Shown here one piece after another: positions 1 to 64,000 of a DNA stretch of 64,000 nucleotides. The notes under the pieces are model-generated. The model was given only the letters and a program-made list of their open reading frames with translations. It was not told where the DNA came from and searched no databases. Source of the DNA: Cryobacterium levicorallinum (GTDB lineage Bacteria; Actinomycetota; Actinomycetes; Actinomycetales; Microbacteriaceae); NCBI RefSeq assembly GCF_004402405.1, contig NZ_SOFE01000003.1:1-64000 (forward strand), read 5' to 3'. Positions within the stretch are counted from its first letter, which is position 1, and each line of letters starts with the position of its first letter. A program made the translations under genes and the position numbers.

Positions 1-1392
1 TGGTGCCGAGGTGCACAACCTGACCCTGGTGGCCGAACAACACGGGCTGATAGCCGCCGGCGCAGACGAGTTCTTCGACTTGTTTGACGCTGAGGGGGCC
101 GTTGATGCCATCGATCCAGCCGGCGCCGCGCCCGGCGAGGAGGTCGTCGACGTGGATGTGCACCAGCACCGTCGGTGCCGCGCCGCCCATCGTCGGGGTT
201 CCCGGCTGTCGAGCGGCCGCCTCGAACACCGCGCGGAGGATCCCGTCCTGCTTCTCACCAATCGAGCGGACGTCGCCGGGTTCCTGCGGGCAAGGACTGA
301 GCACCTGGCCGTCGCTTGCTCCCGTCTGTTCGTCGGCTTCGCCGTGCTCTGTCGGTGTGTGGTTCTCGGCCTGGTCGCCACCGTCAGCGTCGGCGGCAGC
401 TGCTGCGCGACCGTCGCTGTCGCTGCTGTCGCTGCCATCGCTGCTGGTGCTGTCCGTGCCGTCTTCAGCGGACGGTTCGCTCGCGTGGAACGCGACCGTG
501 GCGCGTGGGGTAGCGCCGGGGACGGGGTTGGCGGCGGCCGAAGACAGGTAGGCGTCGAAGACGGTGCTGATGATGGCGCGGTCGAGGGTGCTCAGCCAGC
601 CGGAGAGGCTGTAGCCCCCGTTCGCCAGCCCACCAAAGGAGAGCCAGCTGTGCCGTTTTCCACCGCAGCCTCACCAGGCGCGGACCCATCGGGCGCAAGG
701 CGGGCCTGCCACGCAATGCCCTGCTGCCGCAGCAACTCCGGCGCGAACGCAATCCCCGCACCCGGAAGCCCCTCGGTCTCCGGGGTGATCGCACCGGACC
801 CACTCGCCACGAGAGAGCGTTCGACCCGGTCAAGGTCATCAACCAGAACCGAGGGGCGTAGGCCGTCGAGGACCTTCACGATCACGCGGGCCTGCTCCAC
901 GCCAAGCAACCCGCCCTGCACAGCTTCCCCGACAACGGGATAGGTCGGCGTCAGGGGCCGACCGAGCAGCATCCGCTCACCCGCAGTCTTACTCAGGCTG
1001 GCACGCTGCCGCACCTCACTGCGCGACAACCGAGCCAGGGTCGAAACCAACACGAGACCGCTGCGGCAGCCCAGCCGACGCGCCAGAGACACCGCGCCCG
1101 CCGCTTCCACCTCGGTCTGATCGGCGGTCATCGCCGCTGCCGTCTTCGCCACGGACTCATCAAAGTACTCGGAACGACGCAGCACATCCGTCGTCGACAG
1201 CACCCGGGCCCCATCAACAACCCGACCCACACCCTCCAACGCAAGCAACATGCTCAAGGACTCGTCATCACCGAGCAGCCCGAACGACACCCCACCCAAC
1301 GCCGCCAACAACGCCTCCCGCGCCTGCTCCACCGCCACAATAGTGGGGTTCACACTGACGTCGCTCGGGTTTTCCATGAACATGGGCGCCAT
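1..1392 (-). pseudogene. DUF222 / HNH endonuclease-type protein (13E12 repeat family), frameshifted, cut by window edge
   Basis: The first ~265 codons (1392 down to about 620) read as the N-terminal helical DUF222 domain of the 13E12/REP proteins that are multicopy in Actinobacteria and usually end in an HNH nuclease domain. A run of five G on the coding strand (614-618) shifts the frame. With one more G, reading continues without a stop to base 1 (GGYSLSGWLSTLDRA, then an Asp/Ser-rich linker, then PTVLVHIHVDDLLAGRGA, typical of the region before HNH). The HNH motif would lie beyond the window. The start is an ATG at 1392 preceded by GGGGAGGAGG. The defect is either a real homopolymer indel or a sequencing error. 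Function of the family is not settled; association with mobile DNA is common. Confidence 0.85.
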
Positions 1393-1589
1393 TGCCTCCT
1401 CCCCATGATTCTAGCCCAAACCGAACACAAAAGCGAGAGAAACTCAGACATATTCGAGACAGCATTTACGCAACTGAAGGTCGTGAACCTTGCTTCCATC
1501 TGCAGGAGAGTGATAATCGCTCGTAATACTCCGCCGAAGTCGGTTGGTGCCAACTTTTTGATGTCGAAACAATAAACGATTCTCAATCA

Positions 1590-1674
1590 CGAATAGCCCC
1601 AGCGTCCGCGCCTGCTCCACCGCCCCGCGCACCAGCACCGCGCCAATTCCGCATCGCCGATGTGCGTCCGTCAA
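1590..1674 (-). pseudogene. GNAT acetyltransferase fragment (remnant)
   Basis: A short stretch reads TDAHRRCGIGAVLVRGAVEQ followed by ARTLG, matching the acetyl-CoA binding motif A of GNAT acetyltransferases (R-x-x-G-x-G followed by an amphipathic helix ending in AR..G). Only about 30 residues are recognisable. Both sides run into non-family sequence, so this is at most debris. The 1393-1974 interval otherwise holds only the IS3 fragment to its right; no intact gene is seen. Confidence 0.35.
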
Positions 1675-1704
1675 GTTATTGAGACAATCTGATTGATTTT
1701 TCTT

Positions 1705-1863: not shown

Positions 1864-1974
1864 GGTGCTAAACCCCGCACATCCAAGCGAATGTCAGCCG
1901 ACACTTATAACCCTGTCTAAGGCTCGAAGGCGTCACGATTCGCGGCGTGGCCTGCTCAGTGCCAGACTTGTACC

Positions 1975-2976
1975 ATGGTGTTCTCACTGCCGATCCTCGA
2001 TTTCTCTCAACTCGACGCTGGCGAAGCCGAAGCTGCGGTATTCCGCGCCGAACTCCTGCGCGTCACCCACGAGGTCGGGTTCTTCTACCTGACCGGCCAC
2101 GGCGTCGACCCGCAGCTGACGAAAGAGCTCCTCGCCGTCTCCCGCAAATTCTTTGATCTGCCGGCCGAACAGAAACTCAAGCTGGAAAACATCCATAGTC
2201 CCCAGTTTCGCGGTTATACCCGCGTTGGCGGGGAGCTCACCGCCAACGCCGTTGACTGGCGTGAGCAAATCGATATCGGAGTAGACCGCGAGCCCGTGCC
2301 CCTCGCCGTCGGAACTCCAGACTATTGGCGCCTCGAGGGCCCGAACCTCTGGCCGGAGTCCTTGCCCGAGCTGAAGACCGTCGCCCTGCGCTGGAATGAG
2401 GAGCTGAGCCGCATCGCGCTTCGCCTGCTGCGCGCCTGGGCACTCGCTCTCGGCAGCCCCGAGAGGGTCTTCGACGCCGCTTTCGCCGAGAACCCGTTCC
2501 TCTTGACCAAGATCGTGCGCTATCCCGGCCAGCCGGTACGTGCCCAGGGTGTGGGCGAGCACCGCGACGGTGGAGTTCTCACACTGCTGCTCGTCGAACC
2601 AGACAAAGACGGCCTGCAAGTCGAGCACGATGGCGAGTGGATCGACGCTCCCCCGCTCGACGGCGCCTTCGTCGTGAACATCGGCGAAATGCTCGAACTG
2701 GCAACGGATGGCTACCTCAAGGCGACCCTGCACCGCGTTTTCTCCCCTGAAGACGGGTCCGACCGCATCTCCGTGCCGTTCTTCTTCAACCCTGCACTCG
2801 ACACCGTAATGCCGCGACTGCAGCTCGACGAGAGTCTTACTCGCGAGGCCCGCGGGCTCTCTGCCGACCCGACCAACAGCCCCATTCTCGAGACGACCTA
2901 CGGTGACAACGCCCTGCGCTACCGCTTACGCGCCCACCCCAACGTGGCTGCGGCCCACCACGCCGATCTGATCTAA
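1975..2976 (+). CDS. 2-oxoglutarate/Fe(II)-dependent oxygenase, isopenicillin N synthase-like family
   Basis: A 333-residue soluble protein of the non-haem iron dioxygenase superfamily. The N-terminal DIOX_N part contains EVGFFYLTGHGVD. The C-terminal jelly-roll domain carries the iron ligands: His and Asp in GEHRDG (about residues 196-198) and His in LHRVF (about 253). They are followed by DRISVPFF, whose Arg-x-Ser binds the 2-oxoglutarate carboxylate. Members oxidise small molecules using 2-oxoglutarate and O2, and the substrate cannot be read from sequence. No strong ribosome site precedes the ATG, so a leaderless or weakly translated message is possible. It stands alone between IS debris and the ammonia-lyase gene. 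Confidence 0.88.
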   Translation: MVFSLPILDFSQLDAGEAEAAVFRAELLRVTHEVGFFYLTGHGVDPQLTKELLAVSRKFFDLPAEQKLKLENIHSPQFRGYTRVGGELTANAVDWREQIDIGVDREPVPLAVGTPDYWRLEGPNLWPESLPELKTVALRWNEELSRIALRLLRAWALALGSPERVFDAAFAENPFLLTKIVRYPGQPVRAQGVGEHRDGGVLTLLLVEPDKDGLQVEHDGEWIDAPPLDGAFVVNIGEMLELATDGYLKATLHRVFSPEDGSDRISVPFFFNPALDTVMPRLQLDESLTREARGLSADPTNSPILETTYGDNALRYRLRAHPNVAAAHHADLI

Positions 2977-3132: not shown

Positions 3133-3387
3133 AATGAGGGTCTACTGAAAGTAGAGATCAGCATTACCGCAGCACGTAGGCGTTTCACCCAGGAGTTCAA
3201 AGACGATCGGAAAGTCCCGCTGTTCTGGGCCGTGACCCTGCACAATACCAGCCAGGGCCGTTTCGACGAGCGGATGGCTCGGACACTCGGCTCGGTCCAC
3301 GGCTGGGTGCCGACCATCACCGTCATCAGCTGCATCGTAGTCGCCGTCGTCGCGCAGCTTCGACTGGACGTGCTGAGCCACCTGTGA
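3133..3387 (+). pseudogene. Chimeric fragment: IS OrfA-like N-terminus joined to a membrane-segment tail
   Basis: An open frame without an ATG or GTG near its beginning reads VEISITAARRRFTQEFKDD, resembling the start of IS3/IS911 OrfA (ARRRFTQEFK...). It then changes abruptly to KVPLFWAVTLHNTSQGRFDE and ends in a hydrophobic stretch, WVPTITVISCIVVAVVAQLR. The second part looks like the C-terminus of a membrane protein I do not recognise. The likely reading is a deletion or insertion scar that fused two remnants. The remainder of 2977-3422 holds no recognisable gene. Confidence 0.45.
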
Positions 3388-3422: not shown

Positions 3423-4541
3423 TCAGATCGGATTTGCAGAGCGGCTTTCTGTACTCAGCAGCACGACCACGGCATCGGAAGTCAGCGACGCTGCGGTGCG
3501 TCTGCCCGGATCGCCTGCGATTGCGCGCATCGCCGCCAGGGACGACGCGCCGCACGGGCCGGCGTCCACCCCGAGCTGCTCGAGGTCGTGCACAGCGCGC
3601 CGCGTGTCGTCCTCCGAGACGGTGACTGCGGCATCCAGACCGTCGATCAAATATGGCCAGGAGTTGCTCGACGGCGTGCCGCAGTTGAGGCCGGCCATGA
3701 TCGTGTATGAGGTCGGCACTGAGGTGAGCGTACCGGCTTGCAGCGAGACGATGACGGATGGTGCGTTCTCGGGTTCGACGCTCAGCACTGTCGGAGCCGC
3801 GGCGACTCCATCCGGTCGCGAGCGATAGTGGCGGATGGCCGCCTCAGCCAGGGACCCGACACCGACGGGAACCGTCACCAGGTCGGCGAGAAGCCCCAAT
3901 TCCCCCAGCTGCGCGTCAGCCTCACTGAAGATGGTCGAGTAGCCGTCGACGATAAGCTGCGGTACCTGCTCATAGCCGGGCCAGGCGGTGTCCTGGATGT
4001 GGAGTGCACTCTCCCCCGCCGACTCGACATAGGCGCGGGCGGCAGCCACCACGCCGTCGTACGGTGCGTCCACCCCAAATACCCCCGCACCCTCCGATTC
4101 GATCGCCGCCCAGGGGAGCTTCGACAGGTAGTTCGAGACGAAGATGCGCGCGGGCAGGCCGAGCAGCCGCGCCATATGGGCGACCGCGCGCCCGTGGTTG
4201 CCGTCGGTCGCGGCGACCAGGGTGAACGGTGCCTGCGCGGTCAGCCGGTCGCGCAACTCCTCCAGCGGAAGCGCCGCATCCGGCGACCCTACCCGAGCCG
4301 ACAGCACGCGCGACACCGCGTACGACGCGCCCATCATCTTGAACGCCGGCAGGCCGAATCGGAACGATTCGTCTTTCACGAACGCACGGCCGACCCTCAA
4401 CTCGTCGGCCAGGGCGGAAACCTCCGTGAGCGAGCTCGGCCGGTAGTCGGGCAGGCTGCGGTGGAATTGCAGGATCGAGTCGTCCACAGCATCCGTTCGC
4501 CACCGCCTGGCGGCCGGGTTGGAGTAGAAATTGTCAGTCAT
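3423..4541 (-). CDS. dpaL: Diaminopropionate ammonia-lyase (PLP-dependent)
   Basis: The protein has 372 residues from the ATG at 4541, which has AGAGG just upstream. The longer upstream reading is not protein-like. The family converts 2,3-diaminopropionate to pyruvate and two ammonia using pyridoxal phosphate. The PLP lysine lies in FKMMGASYA (about residue 66), the phosphate-binding region includes VAATDGNHGRAVAHMA, and there is a glycine-rich PVGVGSLAEAA. N-terminal FYSNPAARRW and KDESFRFGLPAFK are characteristic of the DpaL/YgeX group within the threonine-synthase fold. The gene is monocistronic. It probably serves amino-acid catabolism, since no diaminopropionate biosynthesis gene is nearby. 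Confidence 0.85.
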   Translation of the reverse strand: MTDNFYSNPAARRWRTDAVDDSILQFHRSLPDYRPSSLTEVSALADELRVGRAFVKDESFRFGLPAFKMMGASYAVSRVLSARVGSPDAALPLEELRDRLTAQAPFTLVAATDGNHGRAVAHMARLLGLPARIFVSNYLSKLPWAAIESEGAGVFGVDAPYDGVVAAARAYVESAGESALHIQDTAWPGYEQVPQLIVDGYSTIFSEADAQLGELGLLADLVTVPVGVGSLAEAAIRHYRSRPDGVAAAPTVLSVEPENAPSVIVSLQAGTLTSVPTSYTIMAGLNCGTPSSNSWPYLIDGLDAAVTVSEDDTRRAVHDLEQLGVDAGPCGASSLAAMRAIAGDPGRRTAASLTSDAVVVLLSTESRSANPI

Positions 4542-12163: not shown

Positions 12164-12211
12164 TCCTCCATCCAACCACTCAGGTCGGGCAGCGGATGCC
12201 GTGGGCGTGAT

Positions 12212-24172: not shown

Positions 24173-24246
24173 AACATTCACGCTACCGTCGGCCACCGAC
24201 ACGGCCGACCGACCGCATCCGTTCCACCTGAACGAGGTAATTTCTT

Positions 24247-32730: not shown

Positions 32731-32918
32731 CACCAGCCGACTCGAACATCCGAGGCGGTGTCGACTCCCTACCCGGGTCGGCACCGCCTAGTTTTGTGGA
32801 ACGGCGGCCTCGGTTCAGTTCAGTCGGCCGACCGCTGTGCGCGCGACGCGTTGCAACGGATGCGTAACAAACCGGCCAACCGGGAGATCTCATTCTGGCG
32901 CGAGGGTAGACTCGTTTG

Positions 32919-33040: not shown

Positions 33041-33154
33041 GTTCCGCGGCGCCGCGAGGGCCGTGCCATGGCGGTCTCGGCAGGATCGGCCAACGAATTG
33101 GTGGCGATCCCGAGACCAGCGCGGGTCGTTTCAGCGGATGCTGACCCAGGCCGG

Positions 33155-34938: not shown

Positions 34939-35023
34939 CAGGACCTGACCGGCGAGCCCGGCGAGAAATTCGCTCTCGGCGAAGCGGATGTTGTTGGCCC
35001 CGGCCGCTGCGCCATACTGAGGT

Positions 35024-38463: not shown

Positions 38464-38466
38464 CGG

Positions 38467-46882: not shown

Positions 46883-47005
46883 GACCTCACCCGGCCGACC
46901 GGGCGCGCCCGATCAACCCGGCAGGTACCTGATGGGGTGGCGACCGCCGCGAGCTGACTCGGTACGCATGTTGCGGCATCCGTTGTGCAGGCTGTCATGC
47001 GCGGG

Positions 47006-47824: not shown

Positions 47825-47864
47825 AGCGGATGCCGCGCTGCCGACCGGCAGCGCGGCATCCGCT
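47825..47864 (-). terminator. Terminator of prpC built from an inverted pair of the AGCGGATGC word
   Basis: AGCGGATGCC-GCGCTGCC (47825-47842) and GGCAGCGC-GGCATCCGCT (47847-47864) form eighteen perfect pairs with a GACC loop, 33 bases beyond the citrate synthase stop on the minus strand. The outer ten bases of each arm are the word that is dispersed at high frequency through the window. Confidence 0.8.
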
Positions 47865-54334: not shown

Positions 54335-54682
54335 ATGAGTGAAGCAGTGAAAGACGCCCCACCGAAGTCCATCATCGACTACGAGGCTTTTGAAAAGACC
54401 CCCCGTTTTCTCGAGTTGAAGCGCACCCGCAACAGGTTCGTCGTACCGATGGCAATCTTCTTCTTTGTCTGGTACATCGCCTACGTACTCGCTGCCGCGT
54501 ACCTGCACGAGTTCATGGCCACGCCGGTCTTCGGCCGCATCAATATCGGACTGCTGCTCGGCCTCGGCCAGTTCGTCACGACGTTCGCCATCACCATGAC
54601 CTACGTGACCTTCGCGAACCGCAAGATCGACCCGCGCACCGAAGAACTTCGCCTTGAGCTTGAGCGGATGGAACAGCGATGA
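54335..54682 (+). CDS. DUF485 membrane protein (symporter partner)
   Basis: 115 residues with AAGGAGG before the ATG. Two membrane helices (FVVPMAIFFFVWYIAYVLAA and INIGLLLGLGQFVTTFAITM) and basic motif FLELKRTRNRFV are characteristic of DUF485/YjcH. These are almost always encoded just upstream of the acetate permease ActP, as here: the stop overlaps the symporter start by 4 bases (ATGA). A helper or stability role is inferred from this linkage only. Confidence 0.92.
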   Translation: MSEAVKDAPPKSIIDYEAFEKTPRFLELKRTRNRFVVPMAIFFFVWYIAYVLAAAYLHEFMATPVFGRINIGLLLGLGQFVTTFAITMTYVTFANRKIDPRTEELRLELERMEQR

Positions 54683-56301
54683 ACGCACTGCACCTCCTGG
54701 CCACGACGGTCAAACCGGTTGAAAACAACCCGATCCTGAACATATCCATCTTTCTCGCCTTTGTGGCGGTGACCCTGATCATCGTCATCCGCTCCGGACG
54801 CAACAACAAGTCCGCCGCGGACTACTACACCGGTGGCCGCTCGTTCACCGGACCGCAGAACGGTTTCGCCATCGCCGGCGACTACCTCTCGGCGGCGTCG
54901 TTCCTCGGCATCGTCGGCGCCATCGCGATCAGCGGCTACGACGGGTTCATGTACTCGATCGGATTCCTCGTCGCCTGGCTCGTGGCCCTGCTGCTCGTTG
55001 CGGAGCTCATGCGCAACACCGGCAAGTTCACGATGGCCGACGTGCTCTCCTTCCGGTTGAAGCAGGGTCCAGTACGCGTGGCAGCAGCAACGACCACCCT
55101 GGCCGTGTGCTTCTTCTACCTGCTCGCCCAGATGGCCGGAGCCGGCGGACTCGTCTCGCTACTCCTCGGCATCAACGACAAGCTCGGCCAGTCCATCGTG
55201 GTCACCGTCGTCGGCGCGCTGATGATCGTCTACGTACTGGTCGGCGGTATGAAGGGCACCACGTGGGTGCAGATCGTCAAGGCGTTCCTGCTCATCATCG
55301 GTGCACTCGCCATGAGCATCTGGGTACTGGCCCTGAACGGGTTCAACCTGTCGGCCCTGCTCGACAGCGCTGTTGCCGTCTCGACCTCCGTTCCGGCCGA
55401 TGCGATCCTGGCTCCGGGCCTGAAGTACGGCACCAACCCGCTCGACTTCATCTCGCTCGCCCTCGCCCTGGTTCTCGGAACTGCCGGCCTGCCGCACGTG
55501 CTCATGCGCTTCTACACGGTTCCGACCGCCAAGGAAGCTCGTCGCTCTGTGGTCTGGGCCATCTGGCTCATCGGCGCGTTCTACATCTTCACCCTCGTGC
55601 TGGGCTTCGGTGCCGCATCGCTCGTTGGTGCTGACACCGTTCTCGCCGCTCCCGGTGGAGTGAACTCGGCAGCTCCGCTGCTCGCGCTCGCTCTCGGTGG
55701 TCCGCTGCTGCTCGGCTTCATCTCGGCCATCGCCTTCGCGACGATCCTGGCCGTTGTGGCCGGAATCACCATCACGGCGGCAACGAGCTTTGCGCACGAC
55801 ATCTACGGCTCCGTCATTAAGAAGGGCAAGGGAAACCCCGACGACGAGGTCAAGGTTGCCCGTCGCACCGTGATCGTGATCGGAATCCTCGCCATTGCCG
55901 GTGGTATCGGCGTGCAGGGGCAGAACATCGCCTTCCTCGTGGCACTCGCGTTCGCCGTCGCGGCGAGCGCCAACCTGCCCACCATTCTCTATTCCCTGTT
56001 CTGGCGTGGCTTCACTACCCGGGGCGCGGTCTGGAGCATGTACGGCGGGCTGTCCTCAGCCGTGCTTCTGATCATCTTCTCGCCGGTATTCTCGGGCACT
56101 GACACCTCCATGTTCGGTGCCGCCGTGGACTTCGCGATCTTCCCGCTGAGCAACCCGGGCATCATCTCGATCCCGCTCGGGTTCTTCCTGGGCTGGCTCG
56201 GATCGGTCACCAGCACCGTGAAGGAGAGCCCGAAGCTCGCCGCCGAAATGTCGGTGCGTTCGCTCACCGGGCACGGCGCCGAAAAGGCCGTCGAGCACTA
56301 A
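54679..56301 (+). CDS. Sodium:solute symporter family monocarboxylate/acetate transporter (ActP/MctC-like)
   Basis: 540 residues with about 13 membrane helices (LeuT-fold SSS family). Signatures: AADYYTGGRSFTGPQNGFAI then AGDYLSAASFLGIVGAIAIS, LLAQMAGAGGLVSLLLG, and GTAGLPHVLMRFYTVP, which are typical of acetate/propionate/pyruvate carriers such as MctC. Together with prpE it gives uptake and activation of propionate, feeding prpDBC. The operon ends at the hairpin 56317-56356. Confidence 0.93.
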   Translation: MNALHLLATTVKPVENNPILNISIFLAFVAVTLIIVIRSGRNNKSAADYYTGGRSFTGPQNGFAIAGDYLSAASFLGIVGAIAISGYDGFMYSIGFLVAWLVALLLVAELMRNTGKFTMADVLSFRLKQGPVRVAAATTTLAVCFFYLLAQMAGAGGLVSLLLGINDKLGQSIVVTVVGALMIVYVLVGGMKGTTWVQIVKAFLLIIGALAMSIWVLALNGFNLSALLDSAVAVSTSVPADAILAPGLKYGTNPLDFISLALALVLGTAGLPHVLMRFYTVPTAKEARRSVVWAIWLIGAFYIFTLVLGFGAASLVGADTVLAAPGGVNSAAPLLALALGGPLLLGFISAIAFATILAVVAGITITAATSFAHDIYGSVIKKGKGNPDDEVKVARRTVIVIGILAIAGGIGVQGQNIAFLVALAFAVAASANLPTILYSLFWRGFTTRGAVWSMYGGLSSAVLLIIFSPVFSGTDTSMFGAAVDFAIFPLSNPGIISIPLGFFLGWLGSVTSTVKESPKLAAEMSVRSLTGHGAEKAVEH

Positions 56302-56356: not shown

Positions 56357-56580
56357 CTGTGCCCCTGCTGCTGCAGGCATCCGCTCCCGGGGTACGGTGG
56401 TCGCCGACCTCGGCCAGCGGATGCGCGCGAGCGGCCCCGCAGACACCCTCATGTCGGCAGCATGCCCACTCCAGTTCAAAATGTGGCTAAATACGGTGGC
56501 AGGATGGCTCAGTTTCGAGGGCAGCTCCGGGTCAGTTGTCCCCCCTTCGCGGCACGCGGGAGTTGTGGCCAGGCCACAGG
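56357..56580. other. Gene-free interval after the symporter operon
   Basis: Between the terminator and the 19-base repeat block no coding frame with family character, RNA gene or promoter was recognised. It contains two copies of the dispersed word (GCATCCGCT near 56378 and AGCGGATG near 56416) and a CAGGCCACAG/GTGGCC partial palindrome near 56565. Confidence 0.5.
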
Positions 56581-56701: not shown

Positions 56702-57484
56702 TTAGAGCTCGCGCACTTTCAGCGAACCACGGGCGATGCGTGTCGGGGCCGCCTGGGCGACCGGCTTGATCACGATCAGGTCGAGGTTCACGTGTGCCGG
56801 GCGCTCAACGCTCGACACGATGGTCTCCGCGATGTCCTCCGCCGATAGCGGATCTGGCACGTTGTCGTAGGCCGCGAACGCCTTGTCGGCGTCACCGTTG
56901 AAACGAACCAGACCGAACTCATCCGTTTTGACCATGCCTGGCGCGATCTCGATCACCCGAATCGGCTCACCGGAGAGCTCGAGGCGCAGCACCTCGGTCA
57001 TGGCGTGGGCAGCGAACTTGGCCGCGTTGTAGCCGCCGCCACCGAGATAGGCCACGTGCCCGGCGATCGAAGTGATGGTGACGATGTCGGCCGACCCGGC
57101 CCCGGAGTCGATGCCGGAGCGCAGCAGCGGCAGAATCGCCGTGGTGACCCGCTTGACGGCGAGCACGTTGATCTCGAACATCCAGGCCCAGTCCTCGATA
57201 CTCCCGGCCTCCACAGTGTCGAGGCCTTTGGCGCCGCCGGCATTGTTGACCAGGGCGTGCACCGGGCCGGTGGCGGCGAGATAGTCGCGGAGGGCGTCGA
57301 CATCCGCTTGCAGCGTCAGGTCAGCGGTGAAGACATCCGCTCCCGTGTCCGCTCGCAGCGTAGCGAGGCGGTCGGCCCGCCGCGCGACCCCGACCACATC
57401 CCAGCCTCGCAGCCGGAACAGGCGAACGGTCGCCGCTCCGATTCCCGAACTTGCTCCGGTCACAACCACTCTTCGAGTACTCAT
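56702..57484 (-). CDS. SDR family NAD(P)-dependent oxidoreductase
   Basis: 260 residues from the ATG at 57484 (GGAGAA just upstream). The longer frame overlaps the divergent gene. Classical SDR: VVVTGASSGIGAATVRLF, NNAGGAKGLDTVE, catalytic Ser in ITSIAG, YNAAKFA (Tyr about 150, Lys +4). Arg residues in VARRADRL suggest NADP preference. Similar to YdfG/serine 3-dehydrogenase-like enzymes acting on 3-hydroxy acids. It is divergently transcribed from the acyltransferase gene with only 29 bases between starts, so the two share a control region. Confidence 0.9.
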   Translation of the reverse strand: MSTRRVVVTGASSGIGAATVRLFRLRGWDVVGVARRADRLATLRADTGADVFTADLTLQADVDALRDYLAATGPVHALVNNAGGAKGLDTVEAGSIEDWAWMFEINVLAVKRVTTAILPLLRSGIDSGAGSADIVTITSIAGHVAYLGGGGYNAAKFAAHAMTEVLRLELSGEPIRVIEIAPGMVKTDEFGLVRFNGDADKAFAAYDNVPDPLSAEDIAETIVSSVERPAHVNLDLIVIKPVAQAAPTRIARGSLKVREL

Positions 57485-57513: not shown

Positions 57514-58614
57514 ATGAGCGCACTTGGCACCGCCACCACTCGACCGCAGAAGCGTCGCTTACCCCTCTGGGACAACGCGCGCTGGATCGCGGTCACCCTC
57601 GTGGTGATCGGCCACGCCATTCTCAAACTCATCGGCGAAGCGGATGTCGCATATACGCTGTACCTGTTCATCTACGCATTCCACGTGCCGGTGTTCGTTG
57701 CCGTGAGCGGCTATTTTGCCAAATCGGGGCCTCCCGACGCGCGACAGATGCAGCGGCTGCTCACCGACATCGTTTTTCCGTACCTCATCTTCGAAACCAT
57801 CTGGACCGGGCTGCGCTGGATCCTCGGCGGCAAATTTCTGCTGGATTACTCCAGTGCCAGCTGGACCCTCTGGTTCCTGCTCGCCCTGCTGATCTGGCGG
57901 ATCGCATTGCCCTACCTGGTCTTGCTGCGCTATCCCCTCACCATCAGCATTGTGATCTCCATCGGCGCCGGCTACATCTCGTCGATCGATGGCACCTTCA
58001 CCCTCGCCCGCACCCTCGGGCTGCTCCCGTTCTTCGTGTTCGGCTGGAAACTGCGGCAGTGGCTGCTGACGGACACCTGGCTCGAACTGCGCGCGGGGCT
58101 GGTCTGGCGCTGGCGGGCCGGGGCGCTCGGGCTGTTTGGCGGGCTGTACCTGCTGATCACCCTCAATATCGAGACCCTGCGCGAGCTGCAGGTGCGCCGT
58201 TTTCTGCTCTACGACGAGTCGTACGCGACGTTTGATTACTCCTCATGGTGGGCCGGCGGCATCCGTTTGGCCGTCATACTGCTCGCCTTCGCGCTGATCG
58301 TGGCGTTCCTGATGCTGATCCCCCGGCGCACGACCTGGTTCAGTGAGCTCGGAGCAGCCACGATGTATATCTATCTGCTGCACACCTTTCTGCTCTACCC
58401 GCTGCGTGAAACCGGTGTACTCGACGGGCCGCAGCCGGGCTGGGTGCTTCCGGCGATGATCGTGCTGAGCGTGGCCATCTCGATCGTGCTCTCGCTGCCG
58501 ATCGTGCGGAGGGTAATGCGGCCCCTGGTCGAGCCGAAAGCCCGGTGGCTGTTTCGCCCGGGCGCTGCGACACCGACGGGCACGATTGTGCTGCCGCATC
58601 GCGACCGAAAGTAG
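57514..58614 (+). CDS. Acyltransferase family 3 (OafA/YrhL-like) membrane protein
   Basis: 366 residues from the ATG at 57514 with GGGAGA nine bases upstream. About ten membrane helices. The N-terminus WDNARWIAVTLVVIGHAILK carries the conserved Arg/His of acyltransferase-3 proteins, followed by IYAFHVPVFVAVSGYFAKSG. Others of the family O-acetylate cell-wall or exported carbohydrates; some are fucose 4-O-acetylase-like, and this one resembles that branch. The substrate is unknown. The C-terminal ~30 residues are cytoplasmic and basic. Confidence 0.87.
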   Translation: MSALGTATTRPQKRRLPLWDNARWIAVTLVVIGHAILKLIGEADVAYTLYLFIYAFHVPVFVAVSGYFAKSGPPDARQMQRLLTDIVFPYLIFETIWTGLRWILGGKFLLDYSSASWTLWFLLALLIWRIALPYLVLLRYPLTISIVISIGAGYISSIDGTFTLARTLGLLPFFVFGWKLRQWLLTDTWLELRAGLVWRWRAGALGLFGGLYLLITLNIETLRELQVRRFLLYDESYATFDYSSWWAGGIRLAVILLAFALIVAFLMLIPRRTTWFSELGAATMYIYLLHTFLLYPLRETGVLDGPQPGWVLPAMIVLSVAISIVLSLPIVRRVMRPLVEPKARWLFRPGAATPTGTIVLPHRDRK

Positions 58615-58727
58615 CATCCGGCAGAAGATGACGCCGTGTTGCGGCATCCGTTGCAGGGTTCACACCGGCTCCATATGCTCGTGGCCAGAGCGCCGGACAA
58701 TCCGCGCCGAGTGATCCGGAGGCTATC

Positions 58728-60059
58728 GTGACCGACAATTCTTCATCGTGGAAGTTTGAGACCAAGCAGGTTCACACCGGAGCACACCCGGACCCGACCA
58801 CCAACGCTCGGGCGACGCCGATCTACCAGACCACCTCGTATGTCTTCAACAGCGCAGAGCACGCCCAGAACCTGTTCGCGCTGGCCGAATTCGGCAATAT
58901 CTACACCCGCATCCAGAACCCCACCCAGGCCGTCGTCGAGGAGCGCGTGGCCGCACTCGAGGGGGGCACCGCGGCGCTGCTGCTGTCCAGCGGACAGTCG
59001 GCGTCCACTTTTGCGGTGTTGAACATCGCCCAGGCCGGCGACCACATTGTCTCGTCCAGCTCGATCTATGGCGGCACCTACAACCTGTTCAAGTACACCC
59101 TGGCCAAGCTCGGCATCGAAACCACCTTCGTGGAAGACCAGGATGACGCGGCCGAGTGGGCCCGTGCGGTGCGCCCCAACACCAAGCTGTTCTTCGCCGA
59201 GACCATCGGAAACCCGCGCATCAACGTGCTCGACATAACTCTGGTAGCGGATGTCGCCCACGCCGCCGGCATTCCGCTGATCGTCGATAACACGATCGCG
59301 ACGCCGTACCTGATTCGCCCGTTCGAGCACGGCGCCGACATCATCGTGCACTCGGCCACGAAATTCCTCGGCGGCCACGGCGCCGTCATCGGCGGGGTTC
59401 TCGTCGACGGTGGCAAGTTCGAGTGGTCGAAGAATGTGGAAAAGTTCCCCGGACTGACCGAACCCGACCCCTCCTACCACGGCGCGAGCTACACCACCGC
59501 GGTCGGTGACGGCATCGCCTACGTCATCAAGGCTCGCGTGCAGCTGCTGCGTGACCTCGGAAGCGCCATCGCCCCGGCGAGCGCCTGGCAGCTCATCCAA
59601 GGCATCGAGACGCTCAGTCTGCGCATCGAACGCCACGTGCAGAATGCCCAGGAAATCGCCGAGTGGCTCGACAACCACGACGACATCGCCTCGGTGAACT
59701 ACGCCGGCCTGCCCTCGAGCCCCTGGTACGCCAACGCCAACAAGTACGCCCCGCTCGGCGTCGGAGCGGTGCTCTCCTTCGAACTCAAGGGCGGAGTCGC
59801 CGCCGGCCGCGCCCTCGTCGACAATCTGAGCTTGTTCAGCCACCTCGCCAACATCGGCGACGTGCGTTCCCTGGTCATTCACCCGGCCTCGACCACGCAC
59901 GCCCAGCTCACCCCGGAGCAGCAGCTCACCGCCGGCGTCACCCCGGGCCTGGTGCGGCTCTCGGTCGGCATCGAAAACGTGGCCGACCTGAAAGCCGACC
60001 TCGAGGCTGGCCTCGCCGCGGCCCGCGCCGTCGTCAAGCGCGACCGCGCCGACGCCTGA
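58728..60059 (+). CDS. metY: O-acetylhomoserine sulfhydrylase (aminocarboxypropyltransferase)
   Basis: 443 residues from a GTG with CCGGAGG seven bases upstream. PLP enzyme of the Cys/Met metabolism family that makes homocysteine from O-acetylhomoserine and sulfide. Start WKFETKQVHTGAHPDPTTNA, then RIQNPTQAVVEERVAALEGG, and PLP Lys in VHSATKFLGGHG (about residue 212). Length (over 430) is typical of MetY rather than MetB or MetC. Followed by metX, which supplies its substrate. No S-adenosylmethionine riboswitch was recognised in the 113 upstream bases. Confidence 0.95.
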   Translation: MTDNSSSWKFETKQVHTGAHPDPTTNARATPIYQTTSYVFNSAEHAQNLFALAEFGNIYTRIQNPTQAVVEERVAALEGGTAALLLSSGQSASTFAVLNIAQAGDHIVSSSSIYGGTYNLFKYTLAKLGIETTFVEDQDDAAEWARAVRPNTKLFFAETIGNPRINVLDITLVADVAHAAGIPLIVDNTIATPYLIRPFEHGADIIVHSATKFLGGHGAVIGGVLVDGGKFEWSKNVEKFPGLTEPDPSYHGASYTTAVGDGIAYVIKARVQLLRDLGSAIAPASAWQLIQGIETLSLRIERHVQNAQEIAEWLDNHDDIASVNYAGLPSSPWYANANKYAPLGVGAVLSFELKGGVAAGRALVDNLSLFSHLANIGDVRSLVIHPASTTHAQLTPEQQLTAGVTPGLVRLSVGIENVADLKADLEAGLAAARAVVKRDRADA

Positions 60060-60132: not shown

Positions 60133-61335
60133 ATGGAATGGCAATCATCAGCAGACACGGTCCCGTCGAGCTTCATCACCGAAGCCCAGGCGCGCTCGGT
60201 CCTCGGCAAGCCTCCGGCGACCGGTGCCTGGCGTGACGGTGACCCGGTGGGAAACCGGCAATTCGCCACTCTCGGCCCGCTGAGCTTTGAGGCCGGCGGC
60301 AGCCTCCCCATGGTGCGGCTCGCCTACGAGACCTGGGGCACCCTCAATCCGGCCGGCGACAATGCCGTGCTCGTGCTGCACGCGCTCACCGGCGACAGCC
60401 ACCTGGCCGGTGCCCCCGGCCCCGGCCAGGAGACCGGCGGCTGGTGGGACGGCATCGTCGGACCGGGCCTCGCCATCGACACCGACCGGTGGTTCGTCGT
60501 GGCGCCGAACATGCTCGGCGGCTGCCAGGGCAGCACCGGGCCGGCGTCGCTGGCTCCGGACGGTCTGGAGTGGGGCATCCGTTTTCCCTATCTCACGATT
60601 CGCGACCAGGTCAGCGCGCAGCGCGTTTTCAGCGACCGACTCGGCATCGACCGCTGGGCTGCCGTCATCGGCGGGTCAATGGGCGGCATGCACGCCTTGG
60701 AATGGGCGATCATCACCCCCGAGCGGGTCGAGCGCCTGATCATTTTGGCCGCGCCGCCAATCACCACGGCCGATCAGATCGCCGTCAACTCAGTTCAGAT
60801 CGAGGCGATTCGCACCGACCCGGCCTTTCGGGCCGGCGATTATTACGATGAAGCAGATGGTGACGGACCGACGCGCGGGCTGGCCCTCGCCCGCCGCATG
60901 GCCCTGTTGAACTACCGCAGCCCAGCCGAACTCAACGCACGCTTCGCGCGGGGCTGGCAGAGCGATATCAGTCCGCTCGGCGCCAACGGTCGCTTCGCCG
61001 TGGAATCGTATCTTGACTTTCACGGGAATAAATTCACCAGGCGCTTCGACGCCAACAGCTACATCGTGTTGGTCGAAGCCATGAATTCCCACGATGTCGG
61101 GCGCGGCCGCGGCGGCGTGGCGACCGCCCTCGGCCGGGTCACCGCCCGGTCCGTTGTCGTCGGTATCGACAGTGACCGACTGTTCCCGGTCGACGGCCAG
61201 CGCACCATCGCCGCCCACCTGCCGAACAATATCGATGGCCCCACCGCTGTGGTGCTGGAATCCGGGTATGGTCACGATGGCTTCCTCATCGAGAACGAAG
61301 CGATCGGCGCCCAAATACGGCGGGTGTTGGACTAG
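60133..61335 (+). CDS. metX: Homoserine O-acetyltransferase
   Basis: 400 residues. Alpha/beta hydrolase that acetylates homoserine from acetyl-CoA. Nucleophile Ser in IGGSMGGMHALEW (about residue 180), Asp in GIDSDRLFPV (about 346), His in GYGHDGFLIE (about 381). LAYETWGTLNPAGDNAVLVL and ALTGDSHLAG are conserved MetX features. Together with metY it gives direct sulfhydrylation to homocysteine. The predicted start is the ATG at 60133; its ribosome site is weak. Confidence 0.95.
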   Translation: MEWQSSADTVPSSFITEAQARSVLGKPPATGAWRDGDPVGNRQFATLGPLSFEAGGSLPMVRLAYETWGTLNPAGDNAVLVLHALTGDSHLAGAPGPGQETGGWWDGIVGPGLAIDTDRWFVVAPNMLGGCQGSTGPASLAPDGLEWGIRFPYLTIRDQVSAQRVFSDRLGIDRWAAVIGGSMGGMHALEWAIITPERVERLIILAAPPITTADQIAVNSVQIEAIRTDPAFRAGDYYDEADGDGPTRGLALARRMALLNYRSPAELNARFARGWQSDISPLGANGRFAVESYLDFHGNKFTRRFDANSYIVLVEAMNSHDVGRGRGGVATALGRVTARSVVVGIDSDRLFPVDGQRTIAAHLPNNIDGPTAVVLESGYGHDGFLIENEAIGAQIRRVLD

Positions 61336-61405: not shown

Positions 61406-62575
61406 ATGCAACGCATCCTCAAGGAGCGAGACCGGCTCCTTCGCAGAGCGGTGCAGGCGGCCGGGCTGACCGGCTCGGCCACGACGCTGGCGTGCTTGTT
61501 CGTACCCGGTGGCCTTGCCGGAGACGCGCGCATTGCGGCGGTGGCGCTCATCCTGCTGCTGGCGGCCGCGCAGTACCTGCTCGGCAGCACGGGCGCCCTG
61601 CGCTGGGCGGTGCTTATCGTGCTCTGCGGAGAAGGAACGATCCTGGTCGTGGGCTTCGCGAGCCACCCCGGAGTTTCTCCCAACCCAATCGAGGAAAGCG
61701 TGATCGGCATGGTGGCGACCGCGCCGATGTGCGCGGTCGCGGCAGTACTGATCACGAGCGCACGTCGGCTGCTGATGCTCGGCTCCTTCTTCGTGCTGAC
61801 CGTCGCGACTGTTGCCGTCGTTACAGTAGGCGCCCCCAACCAAGTCATTCTGCTCACCCTGACGGTGGCCATGTGGTTTTCCTTCACCCTCGCCTCCTGG
61901 TTTATCGCGCAGAGCGTCCCTCGGGTAATGCACCGCATTGCCGCGATCGGGCGTGCCTACCGCGCCGAACGGCACGCCAGCGAACTCGAGGCGCAACGCC
62001 GACAGGACGCCCGGTTGCTGCACGATACCGTGCTCGCCACGCTGACCCTGCTGGCCCATTCCGGGGTCGGAGTGAGCCCAGCAGCCCTGCAGAAGCAGGC
62101 TGGCGACGACGCCCGGCTACTGCGTCAATTGCGGCTCGGCGGCCTGCCGATGCCGAGCCGTTCCGGCGGGTATACCCTCGAACCAGCCTCGCTGCTGACC
62201 CTCGGCGACACGCTCGACGAAGTGCGTCAGCGCTTCGAACGGGTCGGTCTGACCGTCAACTGGCACGGCAGCGGGCAGGTGCAGTTGCCCAGCAACGTGC
62301 TCGATTCCTTTCTGCTCGCCCTCTCTGAGTGCCTCGAAAACGTGCGCCGTCACTCCGGGGTCGATCATGCCGACGTAACAATAACGGATGACGACGCCAC
62401 CATTCGCGCGATGGTCACGGACACCGGGGTCGGCTTCGACCTCGGACAGGTCGGTTCGGAACGACTCGGCGTCGCCGAGTCGGTCGTTGCCCGGCTGCGT
62501 GACGCGGGGGGCAACGCTCGTCTGTTTTCCTCGCCGGGTGCCGGAACGACGGTTGTTCTTGAGGTTCCCAAATGA
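61406..62575 (+). CDS. Sensor histidine kinase, HisKA_3/LiaS-DesK-like
   Basis: 389 residues. Five or six membrane helices in the first ~180 residues with little extracellular loop. A cytoplasmic coiled segment (RAYRAERHASELEAQRRQDA) leads to the phospho-acceptor HDTVLATLTLLA (His about residue 206). HATPase_c: N-box ECLENVRRHSG (about 311), G1 VTDTGVGFDL, G2 LGVAESVVARLRDAGG, GAGTTVVLEVP. The HD-x-V context suits kinases paired with NarL/LuxR regulators, and one begins at 63952. It overlaps the next gene by 4 bases. Confidence 0.87.
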   Translation: MQRILKERDRLLRRAVQAAGLTGSATTLACLFVPGGLAGDARIAAVALILLLAAAQYLLGSTGALRWAVLIVLCGEGTILVVGFASHPGVSPNPIEESVIGMVATAPMCAVAAVLITSARRLLMLGSFFVLTVATVAVVTVGAPNQVILLTLTVAMWFSFTLASWFIAQSVPRVMHRIAAIGRAYRAERHASELEAQRRQDARLLHDTVLATLTLLAHSGVGVSPAALQKQAGDDARLLRQLRLGGLPMPSRSGGYTLEPASLLTLGDTLDEVRQRFERVGLTVNWHGSGQVQLPSNVLDSFLLALSECLENVRRHSGVDHADVTITDDDATIRAMVTDTGVGFDLGQVGSERLGVAESVVARLRDAGGNARLFSSPGAGTTVVLEVPK

Positions 62576-63906
62576 GTCCGCTGAGCGACACCGCACCCAT
62601 TGATACCGTTCGCACGCGCGGTGTGGGTGCGCGCCTGCTGGGCGGGCCGGACGAGCGAAGCTGGCCGACATCATCCGCTGGCCAAACGACCCGGGCCGCA
62701 CTGTCGCCGCTGCGGTTTCCGCGATCGAGCCTGCGTGGTGACGGTCATTTCACCGTTTTCCGCTCGGACCAAAACGGTTTAGGCGCCCGCCACCTCGGTA
62801 TCGGTATGAGCATCAGTGCGGCCGTCATCGCCGTTTTTCTGGCTGTGCGGCTGGTGGTCGAGTGGGACCAGGCCCCCACGCCCACACTGAGTATTGTGGC
62901 CTGGCTGTTACTCGCCGCGATCGCGGTCGGGGTGAACCTGGCGGTCCACGAACTCTCCTCACGCATGCCCATGTGGCTGTTTCTACTAGCCCTCGGCCTC
63001 TGCGCGATCGTGGTCGCCCTCGACCTGGCCGGATCCATGGGAATTCCGGGAACGGCGGCCTTTCCCACCGCGGCTCCAGCCGTTGGCGCCTTTCTGCTGA
63101 CGATTGCGACCCTGCGGGAATCTCGCGATATCACCCTGGCAGCGCTCGCCCTCGGTGTCATCATGGGCGCTGCAACCCTGCTCGAAGCCCGCAGCGACGT
63201 GCTGACGCTGGGACCAGATATTCTCGGGGTCACCCTCGCGGTGGTACCGCCGGTGGTCGGCGCGAGCATTGTGCAAGCGTTTCGGCGCATGGTTCAGCGC
63301 GAGCTCGACCTCGTGCTCGTGCAGAGCACCGTGTCCCAGCCACGGTTTGCGGTCGGCATGCTCGCCTCGGAACAGCTGGCTCGGCTCGACCTCGATGCGG
63401 AGACCTTGCTCGACGATGTGGCCCAGGGACGCACAGCGCTTCCGTTGGCCGCGTCGACGGCCACGACCGCTGCGTCGCTCGCCACCCAGTTGCGCGTGCA
63501 CCTGATCGAGGGCCGCACCGAGACCTGGCTGCACCACGCGATCACGGAGAGCGAGTTTCTTGGCCCCGTCGTAGCCCTGAGCGACCCGGCTGGGCTCGCC
63601 GGGCTGTTGTCGCCGACCCAACGTGAGGGGCTGCTCCTGACGATTTGGCTGCTGATCGGGGATACCCAGCGATCGGGAGCATCCGTTTCACTGCGGTTCG
63701 GACCGATTGCCCCCACACGTGGGGTGGGGCTGCAGCACCAGGTGCGTTTTCCGATTCAATTGACCACAACTGGGGTATCGCGGCGGCGTGTCGATCCCGA
63801 AACCTGGCAGGCGATTTGTGCGGTTGGTCCGCACATGGATTCCAATTGGGCCGGAAGCTTGCGGGTAGACATCGAGTGCAGTGTGGACAATCCAGCTGAT
63901 GCCTAG
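62572..63906 (+). CDS. Multi-pass membrane protein linked to the histidine kinase, sensor-like C-terminus
   Basis: 444 residues, ATG overlapping the kinase stop. A ~75-residue cytoplasmic N-terminus is followed by about five helices (GIGMSISAAVIAVFLAVRLV ... FLLTIATL ... LGVTLAVVPPVVGASIV), then a ~190-residue soluble part. That part contains LATQLRVHLIEGRTETWLHH and LSPTQREGLLLTIWLLIGD, an arrangement resembling a kinase dimerisation/ATPase region without a phospho-His or the glycine boxes. It may be an accessory sensor for the kinase. No exact family recognised. Confidence 0.72.
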   Translation: MSPLSDTAPIDTVRTRGVGARLLGGPDERSWPTSSAGQTTRAALSPLRFPRSSLRGDGHFTVFRSDQNGLGARHLGIGMSISAAVIAVFLAVRLVVEWDQAPTPTLSIVAWLLLAAIAVGVNLAVHELSSRMPMWLFLLALGLCAIVVALDLAGSMGIPGTAAFPTAAPAVGAFLLTIATLRESRDITLAALALGVIMGAATLLEARSDVLTLGPDILGVTLAVVPPVVGASIVQAFRRMVQRELDLVLVQSTVSQPRFAVGMLASEQLARLDLDAETLLDDVAQGRTALPLAASTATTAASLATQLRVHLIEGRTETWLHHAITESEFLGPVVALSDPAGLAGLLSPTQREGLLLTIWLLIGDTQRSGASVSLRFGPIAPTRGVGLQHQVRFPIQLTTTGVSRRRVDPETWQAICAVGPHMDSNWAGSLRVDIECSVDNPADA

Positions 63907-63951
63907 TATTGGGGATATAGACGATAAGGTGCACTCAGTAGGAGGCAACAC

Positions 63952-64000
63952 ATGACGACGACACCCCGGCCCATCCGCTTGGCCCTTGTTGACGACCACA
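63952..64000 (+). CDS. Response regulator, 5' end only (cut by window edge)
   Basis: AGGAGG nine bases before the ATG at 63952 opens MTTTPRPIRLALVDDH, the beta-1 strand and acidic pair of a CheY-like receiver. Given the HisKA_3 kinase upstream it is expected to be a NarL/LuxR-type DNA-binding regulator, but only 16 codons are visible. A possible -10 (TATAGA) lies near 63915, so it may have its own promoter. Confidence 0.8.
   Translation, partial: MTTTPRPIRLALVDDH

What the first reader, a model, noticed from the sequence alone, without database searches (positions are those of the whole stretch)
970..63970. The DNA word A(G/A)CGGATG is strongly over-represented on both strands
Scanning by eye I find about 42 AGCGGATG/CATCCGCT and about 20 AACGGATG/CATCCGTT. 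With roughly 66% G+C, base composition predicts about 2.5 and 1.3. The following base is mostly C or T. Inside genes it is usually read GCG-GAT-G(C/T)C (Ala-Asp-Ala/Val) or GCA-TCC-G(C/T)T, although GAC dominates for Asp elsewhere (for example one GAT followed by GAC in ADAD at 33739). That argues for selection on the DNA word, not the peptide. Candidate roles: uptake sequence, recombination hotspot (Chi-like), methylation or restriction context (GGATG), or nucleoid/segregation mark. I know of no description in this group.
Basis: partly seen in the sequence, partly recalled or inferred. Interest (0 to 1): 0.78.

Follow-up and report, generated by a model that had tools for sequence, protein, structure and literature searches.

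The report
Uptake-like DNA word with dialects
A short DNA word is scattered thousands of times over the genomes of many members of one bacterial family, is kept more faithfully than the DNA around it and is spelled differently in different lineages, much like the self-recognition tags that some unrelated bacteria use when they take up DNA.

Summary
The window (genus Cryobacterium, Microbacteriaceae) holds 43 AGCGGATG and 20 AACGGATG. The whole genome holds 2725 ARCGGATG on equal strands (1356/1369) against 336 for the reversed word. Synonymous codon shuffling predicts 32 of the 293 copies seen inside genes. Density is about the same between genes. Synonymous codons inside the word are kept in relatives far more often than elsewhere (424 of 488, expected 262), while those in one-mismatch words are not (435 of 635, expected 417).

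Across 299 Microbacteriaceae genomes the core CGGATGC reaches 13 times its reversed control, with different flanks ("dialects") in different lineages. There is no strand polarity, which argues against Chi or segregation marks.

Best reading: a DNA-uptake-sequence-like mark for natural transformation in a Gram-positive family, arisen independently of those in Neisseriaceae and Pasteurellaceae. The sequence anatomy is shown. The uptake function and the receptor are inferred: comEA, comEC and Tad pilus genes are present, but no machinery gene tested tracks the word well. I found no published description in the library searched.

The parts
970..977 (-). word AGCGGATG
2703..2710 (+). word AACGGATG
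3269..3276 (+). word AGCGGATG (outside my predicted genes)
4490..4497 (-). word AACGGATG
10408..10415 (-). word AGCGGATG
11134..11141 (-). word AACGGATG
11297..11304 (+). word AACGGATG
11572..11579 (-). word AGCGGATG
12191..12198 (+). word AGCGGATG (outside my predicted genes)
12772..12779 (+). word AACGGATG
13498..13505 (-). word AGCGGATG
15303..15310 (-). word AGCGGATG
17923..17930 (-). word AGCGGATG
19574..19581 (-). word AGCGGATG
20541..20548 (+). word AGCGGATG
23942..23949 (+). word AACGGATG
24216..24223 (-). word AACGGATG
25064..25071 (+). word AACGGATG
27620..27627 (-). word AGCGGATG
28442..28449 (-). word AGCGGATG
29940..29947 (+). word AACGGATG
30903..30910 (+). word AGCGGATG
31103..31110 (-). 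word AACGGATG
31893..31900 (+). word AGCGGATG
32855..32862 (+). word AACGGATG (outside my predicted genes)
33133..33140 (+). word AGCGGATG (outside my predicted genes)
33730..33737 (-). word AGCGGATG
34983..34990 (+). word AGCGGATG (outside my predicted genes)
36726..36733 (-). word AGCGGATG
38129..38136 (-). word AGCGGATG
38462..38469 (+). word AGCGGATG (outside my predicted genes)
38817..38824 (-). word AGCGGATG
39721..39728 (-). word AGCGGATG
41460..41467 (-). word AACGGATG
42492..42499 (+). word AGCGGATG
43203..43210 (+). word AGCGGATG
43941..43948 (-). word AGCGGATG
44413..44420 (-). word AGCGGATG
44891..44898 (+). word AGCGGATG
45705..45712 (-). word AGCGGATG
46389..46396 (+). word AGCGGATG
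46977..46984 (-). word AACGGATG (outside my predicted genes)
47825..47832 (+). word AGCGGATG, left arm of an inverted pair
47857..47864 (-). word AGCGGATG, right arm of an inverted pair
47825..47864 (.). inverted pair of words, a G+C-rich stem-loop outside my predicted genes (terminator role inferred)
50169..50176 (+). word AGCGGATG
52974..52981 (+). word AGCGGATG
54233..54240 (-). word AACGGATG
54663..54670 (+). word AGCGGATG
54786..54793 (-). word AGCGGATG
56378..56385 (-). word AGCGGATG (outside my predicted genes)
56416..56423 (+). word AGCGGATG (outside my predicted genes)
56920..56927 (-). word AACGGATG
57301..57308 (-). word AGCGGATG
57334..57341 (-). word AGCGGATG
57639..57646 (+). word AGCGGATG
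58260..58267 (-). word AACGGATG
58645..58652 (-). word AACGGATG (outside my predicted genes)
59246..59253 (+). word AGCGGATG
60576..60583 (-). word AACGGATG
62383..62390 (+). word AACGGATG
62672..62679 (-). word AGCGGATG
63680..63687 (-). word AACGGATG
63972..63979 (-). word AGCGGATG (outside my predicted genes)

Best explanation
The word is the Cryobacterium dialect (ARCGGATGC, preferably followed by C) of a DNA mark widespread in the Microbacteriaceae whose shared core is CGGATGC. It most likely works like a DNA uptake sequence: a DNA receptor on the cell surface (perhaps a minor pilin of a Tad/Flp competence pilus, or a ComEA-like protein) binds the word on free double-stranded DNA and so favours DNA of the own kind for natural transformation. 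Fragments that carry the word are taken up and recombined more often, so copies are gained and repaired by transformation and selection until there is about one per kilobase, on both strands, in and between genes. Receptor change shifts the flanks and creates dialects. Loss of the system, or a change of word, lets copies decay. SHOWN by sequence: abundance, DNA-level maintenance, non-polarity, shared core with varying flanks, a modest excess of inverted pairs, scarcity in low-G+C stretches, presence of comEA, comEC and tad genes. INFERRED: that uptake is the function, which protein reads the word, and that transformation occurs in these species at all.
For: (1) Abundance: 2725 ARCGGATG in 3.75 Mb against 336 reversed; up to 4093 CGGATGCC against 230 in G142. 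(2) It is not codons: 293 in genes against 32 after synonymous shuffling; sense 154, antisense 139; intergenic 0.78/kb, genic 0.84/kb. Similar use on both strands and between genes speaks against an RNA-level signal. (3) It is maintained: at orthologous sites in 7 congeners, codons inside the word kept 424 of 488 (expected 262), one-mismatch words 435 of 635 (expected 417). For example GAT 95 of 103 inside against 449 of 1005 elsewhere, and CAT 19 of 19 against 89 of 197. For the neisserial uptake sequence an exact: one-mismatch ratio of about 2.4 is reported (PMC2397512, passages). (5) No polarity. (6) Dialects around a shared core. At G000 word sites, nine Cryobacterium loci of other dialects keep the whole word in 11 of 64 and CGGATG in 28 of 64 comparisons, background 6-mer identity 0.23 to 0.30. 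(7) Inverted pairs GCGGATG(4-30)CATCCGC 30, opposite order 13, chance about 15. (8) Density falls with G+C (Spearman 0.62 over 98 windows); a word-poor stretch is a surface-polysaccharide region (L013). (9) comEA (SLBB and helix-hairpin-helix domains) and comEC side by side and a locus tadA-tadB-tadC-(short frame without family match)-tadE-unknown-tadG-like. In Micrococcus luteus, of the same order, tad and comEA/comEC genes are required for transformation (PMC4322843 and PMC8467076, passages).
Against: No uptake or transformation data. comEC is in 29 of 30 genomes tested, word-rich and word-poor alike (the miss is G012, 82% complete), and a comEA-like gene lies in 78 of 80 named loci, the two misses being loci cut off just before comEC, so the com genes do not track the word. 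PilB-type pili do not track it either (25 of 50). The second TadA ('group B') is only weakly associated: in 61 of 85 genus representatives, median enrichment 4.42 against 3.0, Mann-Whitney p = 0.023 without correction for descent; 10 of 24 genera without it are still enriched 4-fold or more, and small genomes that have it (e.g. G010, G013) lack the word. Copies are not concentrated between genes or near gene ends (49 of 266 in the terminal fifth), as is reported for some known uptake sequences (abstract of PMC2346458; passages of PMC3630211). Core/accessory contrast could not be tested in the window, which is mostly shared (1.07 and 1.52 per kb; 5 words in 3.3 kb). Plain 8-mer conservation is unremarkable for AACGGATG (148th of 708), and the reversed word was kept 21 of 33 times. 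Phage Min1 of a Microbacterium has 22 CGGATGC against 5 reversed in 46 kb, an excess in phage DNA that uptake does not predict.
Confidence: 0.54

Rival explanations
1. Chi-like recombination hotspot: the word tells the end-processing helicase-nuclease (AdnAB, or RecBCD/AddAB) to stop degrading and start recombination; dialects follow changes in the enzyme.
For: Non-palindromic, about one per kb, lineage-specific words. It contains AGCGG, which I recall as the Bacillus subtilis Chi (recalled, not from a call). Regulation of AddAB and RecBCD by Chi appears in the abstracts listed.
Against: Known Chi sites act in one orientation and are biased to the leading strand (recalled). Here strands are equal: G000 198/207 over 23 stretches and G240 131/147 over 20, heterogeneity p 0.85 and 0.83, far from what a 75:25 bias would give; on the G-rich strand of G240 140 against 138. 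Whether such an enzyme is present and tracks the dialects was not tested.
Confidence: 0.1
2. Binding site of an intracellular chromosome-organising or nucleoid protein that needs many evenly spread sites.
For: Near-random spacing (mean 1121 bp, CV 1.09), both strands, present in each of 20 stretches around the G240 chromosome (4 to 24 copies), poor in low-G+C stretches, maintained at the DNA level.
Against: Change of flanks between related species, decline in some members of a genus (g85: G164 980 against 516 reversed, the other four of that genus in the call 3675 to 5314) and three-fold under-representation in two g52 genomes are odd for a core chromosome function. No polarity was seen.
Confidence: 0.15
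3. Mutation or repair bias: a methyltransferase or mismatch-repair specificity makes the word hypomutable or creates it, without any selected function.
For: Asymmetric words can be recognised by methyltransferases; GGATG is the FokI site (recalled). A bias of this kind would also give conservation and both-strand symmetry, and could act on phage DNA (Min1: 22 CGGATGC against 5 reversed).
Against: The pattern has a 7-base core plus preferred bases up to four positions beyond it (CGGATGCCnCG in G240). Maintenance is specific to the exact word while one-mismatch words behave as background. Restriction-methylation usually leads to avoidance, not 10-fold excess (established knowledge). No methylome data could be consulted.
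Confidence: 0.11
4. Codon or dipeptide preference (Ala-Asp-Ala, Ala-Ser-Ala) or a transcription/translation signal.
For: The dominant frames are GCG-GAT-G and xCA-TCC-GCT.
Against: Codon shuffles give 32 of 293 copies; sense, antisense and intergenic densities are alike; codons GAT, GCT and CAT are kept far more often inside the word than elsewhere.
Confidence: 0.02

Closest known systems
DNA uptake sequence (DUS) of Neisseriaceae, read by the minor pilin ComP
   Same: Thousands of copies; dialects sharing an invariant core (CTG there); inverted pairs at terminators (PMC3630211, passages); highly conserved, with an exact: one-mismatch ratio of about 2.4 (PMC2397512, passages).
   Different: Unrelated sequence (core CGGATGC); high-G+C Gram-positive host; no excess between genes; uptake function untested; receptor unknown (a ComP relative was not searched for).
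Uptake signal sequence (USS: AAGTGCGGT, ACAAGCGGT) of Pasteurellaceae
   Same: Short non-palindromic word in thousands of copies with two versions (PMC3630211, passages).
   Different: Different word and phylum; Pasteurellaceae copies lean to gene ends (abstract of PMC2346458), these do not.
Tad/Flp-pilus natural transformation of Micrococcus luteus
   Same: Same order (recalled); [quoted passage not shown]
   Different: Searching the main text of two M. luteus papers for 'uptake sequence' gave no hit. In the 230 sampled genomes of other families of the order, CGGATGCC is at most about 4 times its reversed form (read by eye). M. luteus itself was not examined.
Chi sites (RecBCD/AddAB)
   Same: Short asymmetric word with lineage-specific spelling (recalled).
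   Different: No strand polarity here.

Membership tests
DNA uptake sequence (DUS/USS-like) | Short word at hundreds to thousands of copies, far above sequence expectation | tested here: met
DNA uptake sequence (DUS/USS-like) | Enrichment independent of codon use, on both strands, in and between genes | tested here: met
   no excess between genes was seen
DNA uptake sequence (DUS/USS-like) | Copies conserved between related genomes beyond neighbouring sequence and near-miss words | tested here: met
   plain 8-mer ranking is weaker for AACGGATG
DNA uptake sequence (DUS/USS-like) | Dialects with a shared core across a family | tested here: met
   g36 and some other lineages lack the core
DNA uptake sequence (DUS/USS-like) | Inverted pairs forming terminator-like hairpins | tested here: met
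   30 against 13 in the opposite order, about 15 by chance: modest excess; terminator role not tested
DNA uptake sequence (DUS/USS-like) | Rare in recently acquired DNA | tested here: inconclusive
   Low-G+C stretches are poor, but core/accessory contrast in the window had only 3.3 kb of accessory DNA
DNA uptake sequence (DUS/USS-like) | Host carries DNA-uptake machinery, and loss of it goes with loss of the word | tested here: inconclusive
   Machinery present; association with the word weak or absent
DNA uptake sequence (DUS/USS-like) | Word raises DNA uptake or transformation; specific receptor | not testable with these tools
   Needs bench work
Chi site | Polar distribution with respect to replication | tested here: not met
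Chi site | Recognised by the host end-processing enzyme | not testable with these tools
   Needs biochemistry
KOPS/segregation mark | Strand bias pointing to the terminus, or clustering near ori or ter | tested here: not met
   Copies in each of 20 stretches of G240, strands equal; positions of ori and ter were not mapped

The most novel reading that the evidence does not exclude
Self-marking of DNA by uptake sequences arose a third time, in a Gram-positive phylum, with a Tad/Flp-type or ComEA-type receptor, and has spread into many lineage dialects around CGGATGC (with GGAGGCGC in the g36 lineage as a possible shifted core). This would make Microbacteriaceae a large natural experiment on how uptake specificity and species barriers evolve.
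Probability: 0.44. Interest if true: 0.92.

Novelty: new variant of a known kind. Interest (0 to 1): 0.82.

Why it matters
[quoted passage not shown] If this word works the same way, the phenomenon has evolved independently in a Gram-positive family, with several dialects and many genomes to compare, which makes the old question (selection for exchange with kin, or molecular drive by a biased receptor) testable in harmless environmental bacteria. Even if the function proves different, a widespread, DNA-maintained, non-polar 9-to-11-base mark with dialects needs an explanation that I could not find in print.

Tried and rejected
PilB-type pilus (PF05157) as determinant: present in 25 of 50 genomes without relation to the word (absent from G079, G142 and G240, which are very rich in CGGATGCC). 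Group-B TadA as determinant: looked convincing on the (truncated) match list, but failed as a rule on 85 genus representatives. comEC and comEA loss as the cause of word loss: genes present nearly everywhere. Raw 8-mer conservation as proof: AGCGGATG ranks 6th of 708 frequent 8-mers but AACGGATG only 148th, and the reversed word was kept 21 of 33 times (few sites), so I used the codon test with a near-miss control instead. Bias to gene ends: none. A strand bias suspected from the mostly '+' place lists was not borne out: strands are equal in the sampled sequence. Shine-Dalgarno explanation of GGAGGCGC in g36: 45 of 54 copies are not followed by a start codon within 12 bases, similar to the reversed word (16 of 21). 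Plasmid origin of the word-poor contig L013: one plasmid match, covering 1%.

Rows dropped or chosen: 5 of the 80 named loci (L085, L086, L100, L108, L138) were left out. In one search each genus is represented by its first listed genome, except g13, where G094 replaced the 82%-complete G012; g82 is represented by G082, which lacks group B although the other g82 genomes have it. A genome was scored as having group B if its best E-value was below 1e-70 (the weakest counted was 2.5e-91, the best not counted 3.1e-53). G311 was left out of the coverage count. L020 in the 436-kb sample is all N. Pairs of site and genome are not independent, so no p-value is given. The other-family ratios were read by eye, not computed.

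Literature: searches found no description of this word or of uptake sequences in this family (one search matched 1,074 papers, of which 20 were listed, those seen being unrelated; none; one, seen as a listing). The library is open-access only. Papers seen: passages of PMC3630211, PMC2397512, PMC12616744, PMC4322843, PMC8467076; abstract of PMC2346458; others only as listings.
Full report
WHAT IS THERE. The window is 64 kb of contig C27 of a 3.75-Mb genome in 36 contigs. Its comEC gene is closest to Cryobacterium suzukii and Cryobacterium sp. PH29-G1 (77 and 78% identity in the best segment), and a genome listed as of the same genus (G279) has a comEC contig of the same length, 20,013 bases, as one of Cryobacterium adonitolivorans, so the genus is Cryobacterium, family Microbacteriaceae. 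AGCGGATG occurs 43 times and AACGGATG 20 times in the window, on both strands, against 2.5 and 1.3 from base composition. In the whole genome ARCGGATG occurs 1356 times forward and 1369 reverse; the same word read backwards occurs 180 and 156 times. In a 436-kb sample (window, including 2 kb of N) an order-3 Markov model expects 21 and 13 copies where 241 and 122 are found; the best 10-mers are AGCGGATGCC, AAGCGGATGC and AACGGATGCC. Of the single-base neighbours, AGTGGATG (36 against 8) and GACGGATG (52 against 24) have the largest excesses; ACCGGATG (40 against 26), AGAGGATG (15 against 7) and AGCGGATA (12 against 5) smaller ones; most others are near or below expectation. Beyond AGCGGATG, C is preferred at the next two positions (77% and 55%) and A weakly before it.

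IT IS NOT PROTEIN OR RNA. I called genes in the sample with a simple codon-usage method (326 genes, 81% of bases). Genes hold 154 sense and 139 antisense copies; shuffling synonymous codons leaves 16 and 16, and a model that also keeps the base before each codon leaves 19 and 17. Density is 0.84 per kb in genes and 0.78 between them. A signal read in RNA would be expected to prefer one strand of genes. Copies are spread evenly along genes (terminal fifth 49 of 266).

IT IS MAINTAINED. The window was aligned with 20 stretches from seven congeners (41.9 to 50.7 kb aligned for six of them and 21.6 kb for G311, 84 to 85% identity). Of 306 site-by-genome comparisons 174 have the strictly identical word. 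Among aligned synonymous codon pairs, codons inside the word are identical in 424 of 488, where the rate of the same codons elsewhere predicts 262. Codons inside one-mismatch words give 435 of 635 with 417 predicted. GAT is kept 95 of 103 inside and 449 of 1005 elsewhere, GCT 38 of 50 and 185 of 834, CAT 19 of 19 and 89 of 197. The comparisons share ancestry, so these are descriptive counts. Against this, plain 8-mer conservation is less striking: AGCGGATG ranks 6th but AACGGATG 148th of 708 8-mers, and the reversed word, present at few sites, was kept in 21 of 33.

NO POLARITY. In 23 stretches of G000 the strands hold 198 and 207 copies, with no more variation between stretches than chance (p 0.85). 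In 20 stretches around the single-contig 3.59-Mb chromosome of G240 the word CGGATGCC has 131 and 147 (p 0.83), and 140 against 138 when counted on the G-rich strand. I did not map ori and ter. Spacing is near random. Two words facing each other, GCGGATG(4-30)CATCCGC, occur 30 times, the opposite order 13 times, about 15 expected for each; one such stem-loop is at 47825-47864 of the window.

A FAMILY OF DIALECTS. In 299 Microbacteriaceae genomes ARCGGATG ranges from under-represented (G051: 59 against 224 reversed) to 2735 (G193). The shorter core CGGATGC is enriched up to 13-fold over its reversed form (G091: 5246 against 403), with a median of 4.1 over 85 genus representatives. In 248 genomes of the order, CGGATGCC reaches 4093 against 230 in G142; among the 230 genomes of other families the highest ratio I read in the table is about 4 (G532, 313 against 79). 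Two sampled g36 genomes lack the core excess and instead over-use AGGAGGCG(C). Eight other pooled Microbacterium loci have little excess (75 against 29 reversed). Within Cryobacterium 24 of 57 genomes have more than 1500 ARCGGATG and the other 33 have 608 to 1387. G239 has only 754 ARCGGATG but 3413 CGGATGC against 753 reversed, i.e. the core without this flank. At G000 word sites in the comEC region, nine Cryobacterium loci of other dialects keep the whole word in 11 of 64 comparisons and CGGATG in 28 of 64 (background 6-mer identity 0.23 to 0.30); C. zongtaii (1 of 10), C. adonitolivorans (0 of 4) and MLB-32 (3 of 11) kept few. Codon shuffling in 75 of 80 named loci puts CGGATGCC first of all 8-mers by excess score (665 against 187).

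WHERE IT IS SCARCE. Word density in G000 rises with G+C of 5-kb windows (Spearman 0.62, n = 98); six of the low-G+C sampled stretches have 0.10 to 0.40 per kb, among them L013 with glycosyltransferase and acyltransferase genes. This fits DNA that arrived recently, but G+C itself also affects the chance of the word. A phage of a Microbacterium, Min1, has 22 CGGATGC against 5 reversed in 46 kb; its host's dialect is unknown and the preferred next base differs from that of the Microbacterium loci, so I cannot weigh this excess.

MECHANISM. The combination (asymmetric, non-polar, about one per kb, maintained, dialects with a shared core, some inverted pairs) resembles what is reported for the uptake sequences of Neisseriaceae (PMC3630211 and PMC2397512, passages). 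G000 has comEC and comEA side by side and a locus tadA-tadB-tadC-(short frame without family match)-TadE-like-unknown-TadG-like, whose tadB and tadC recur near the ATPase in 17 of 18 other loci examined. In Micrococcus luteus tad genes and comEA/comEC are needed for transformation. I therefore favour uptake specificity, with the receptor unknown. The weak point is that no machinery gene that I tested tracks the word: comEC 29 of 30 genomes, PilB 25 of 50 without pattern, second TadA in 61 of 85 genus representatives with only a small difference in enrichment (4.42 against 3.0). Loss of function by small changes, change of word without loss of machinery, and slow decay would all blur such a comparison, but so would a different function.

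RIVALS. Chi-like action is disfavoured by the strand result. An intracellular organising protein is possible and would explain the even spread, but not easily the change of flanks between species or the under-representation in g52. A mutation or methylation bias cannot be excluded without methylomes, and the Min1 count would fit it, but the extended, gapped specificity (CGGATGCCnCG in G240) and the sharp difference between exact and near-miss words speak against it.

VERDICT. It resembles DNA uptake sequences in most sequence features that I could test, not in intergenic or gene-end preference; whether it is one needs a transformation experiment.

Noticed in passing
G035, G110, L137 (Frigoribacterium sp. 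Leaf8): The two g36 genomes lack the CGGATGC excess and over-use AGGAGGCG/GGAGGCGC instead (35 and 31 in 40 kb of G110 against 5 and 6 expected); L137 over-uses the same words. 45 of 54 GGAGGCGC copies in three stretches are not followed by a start codon. Possibly a shifted core (GGATGC to GGAGGC).
   Followed up: partly
G051, G121 (genus g52): CGGATGC is about three-fold under-represented (159 against 522 and 164 against 513 reversed), as if avoided.
   Followed up: no
L013:2568-2709 (G000 contig C28): Seven-base tandem repeat AGGACTA, 20 copies, 98% alike, at the upstream end of an open frame (1238-2572, -) near surface-polysaccharide genes; could be a phase-variation tract.
   Followed up: partly
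L103 (Microbacterium azadirachtae), L115: Palindrome TACGCGTA is strongly over-represented (16 against 0.4 and 10 against 0.5 expected) in two Microbacterium loci that lack the CGGATGC excess.
   Followed up: no
window:13482-24271: Repair genes in the window: RecQ-like helicase (13482-15620 +), SbcC (19968-22994 -) and SbcD (22991-24271 -).
   Followed up: no
G078, G193 (genus g1): Three and two PilB-type (PF05157) matches respectively, where the other 8 of 10 Cryobacterium genomes tested have one.
   Followed up: no
L229 (Microbacterium phage Min1): CGGATGC 22 against 5 reversed in 46 kb: a modest excess in phage DNA that I could not interpret without the host's dialect.
   Followed up: no
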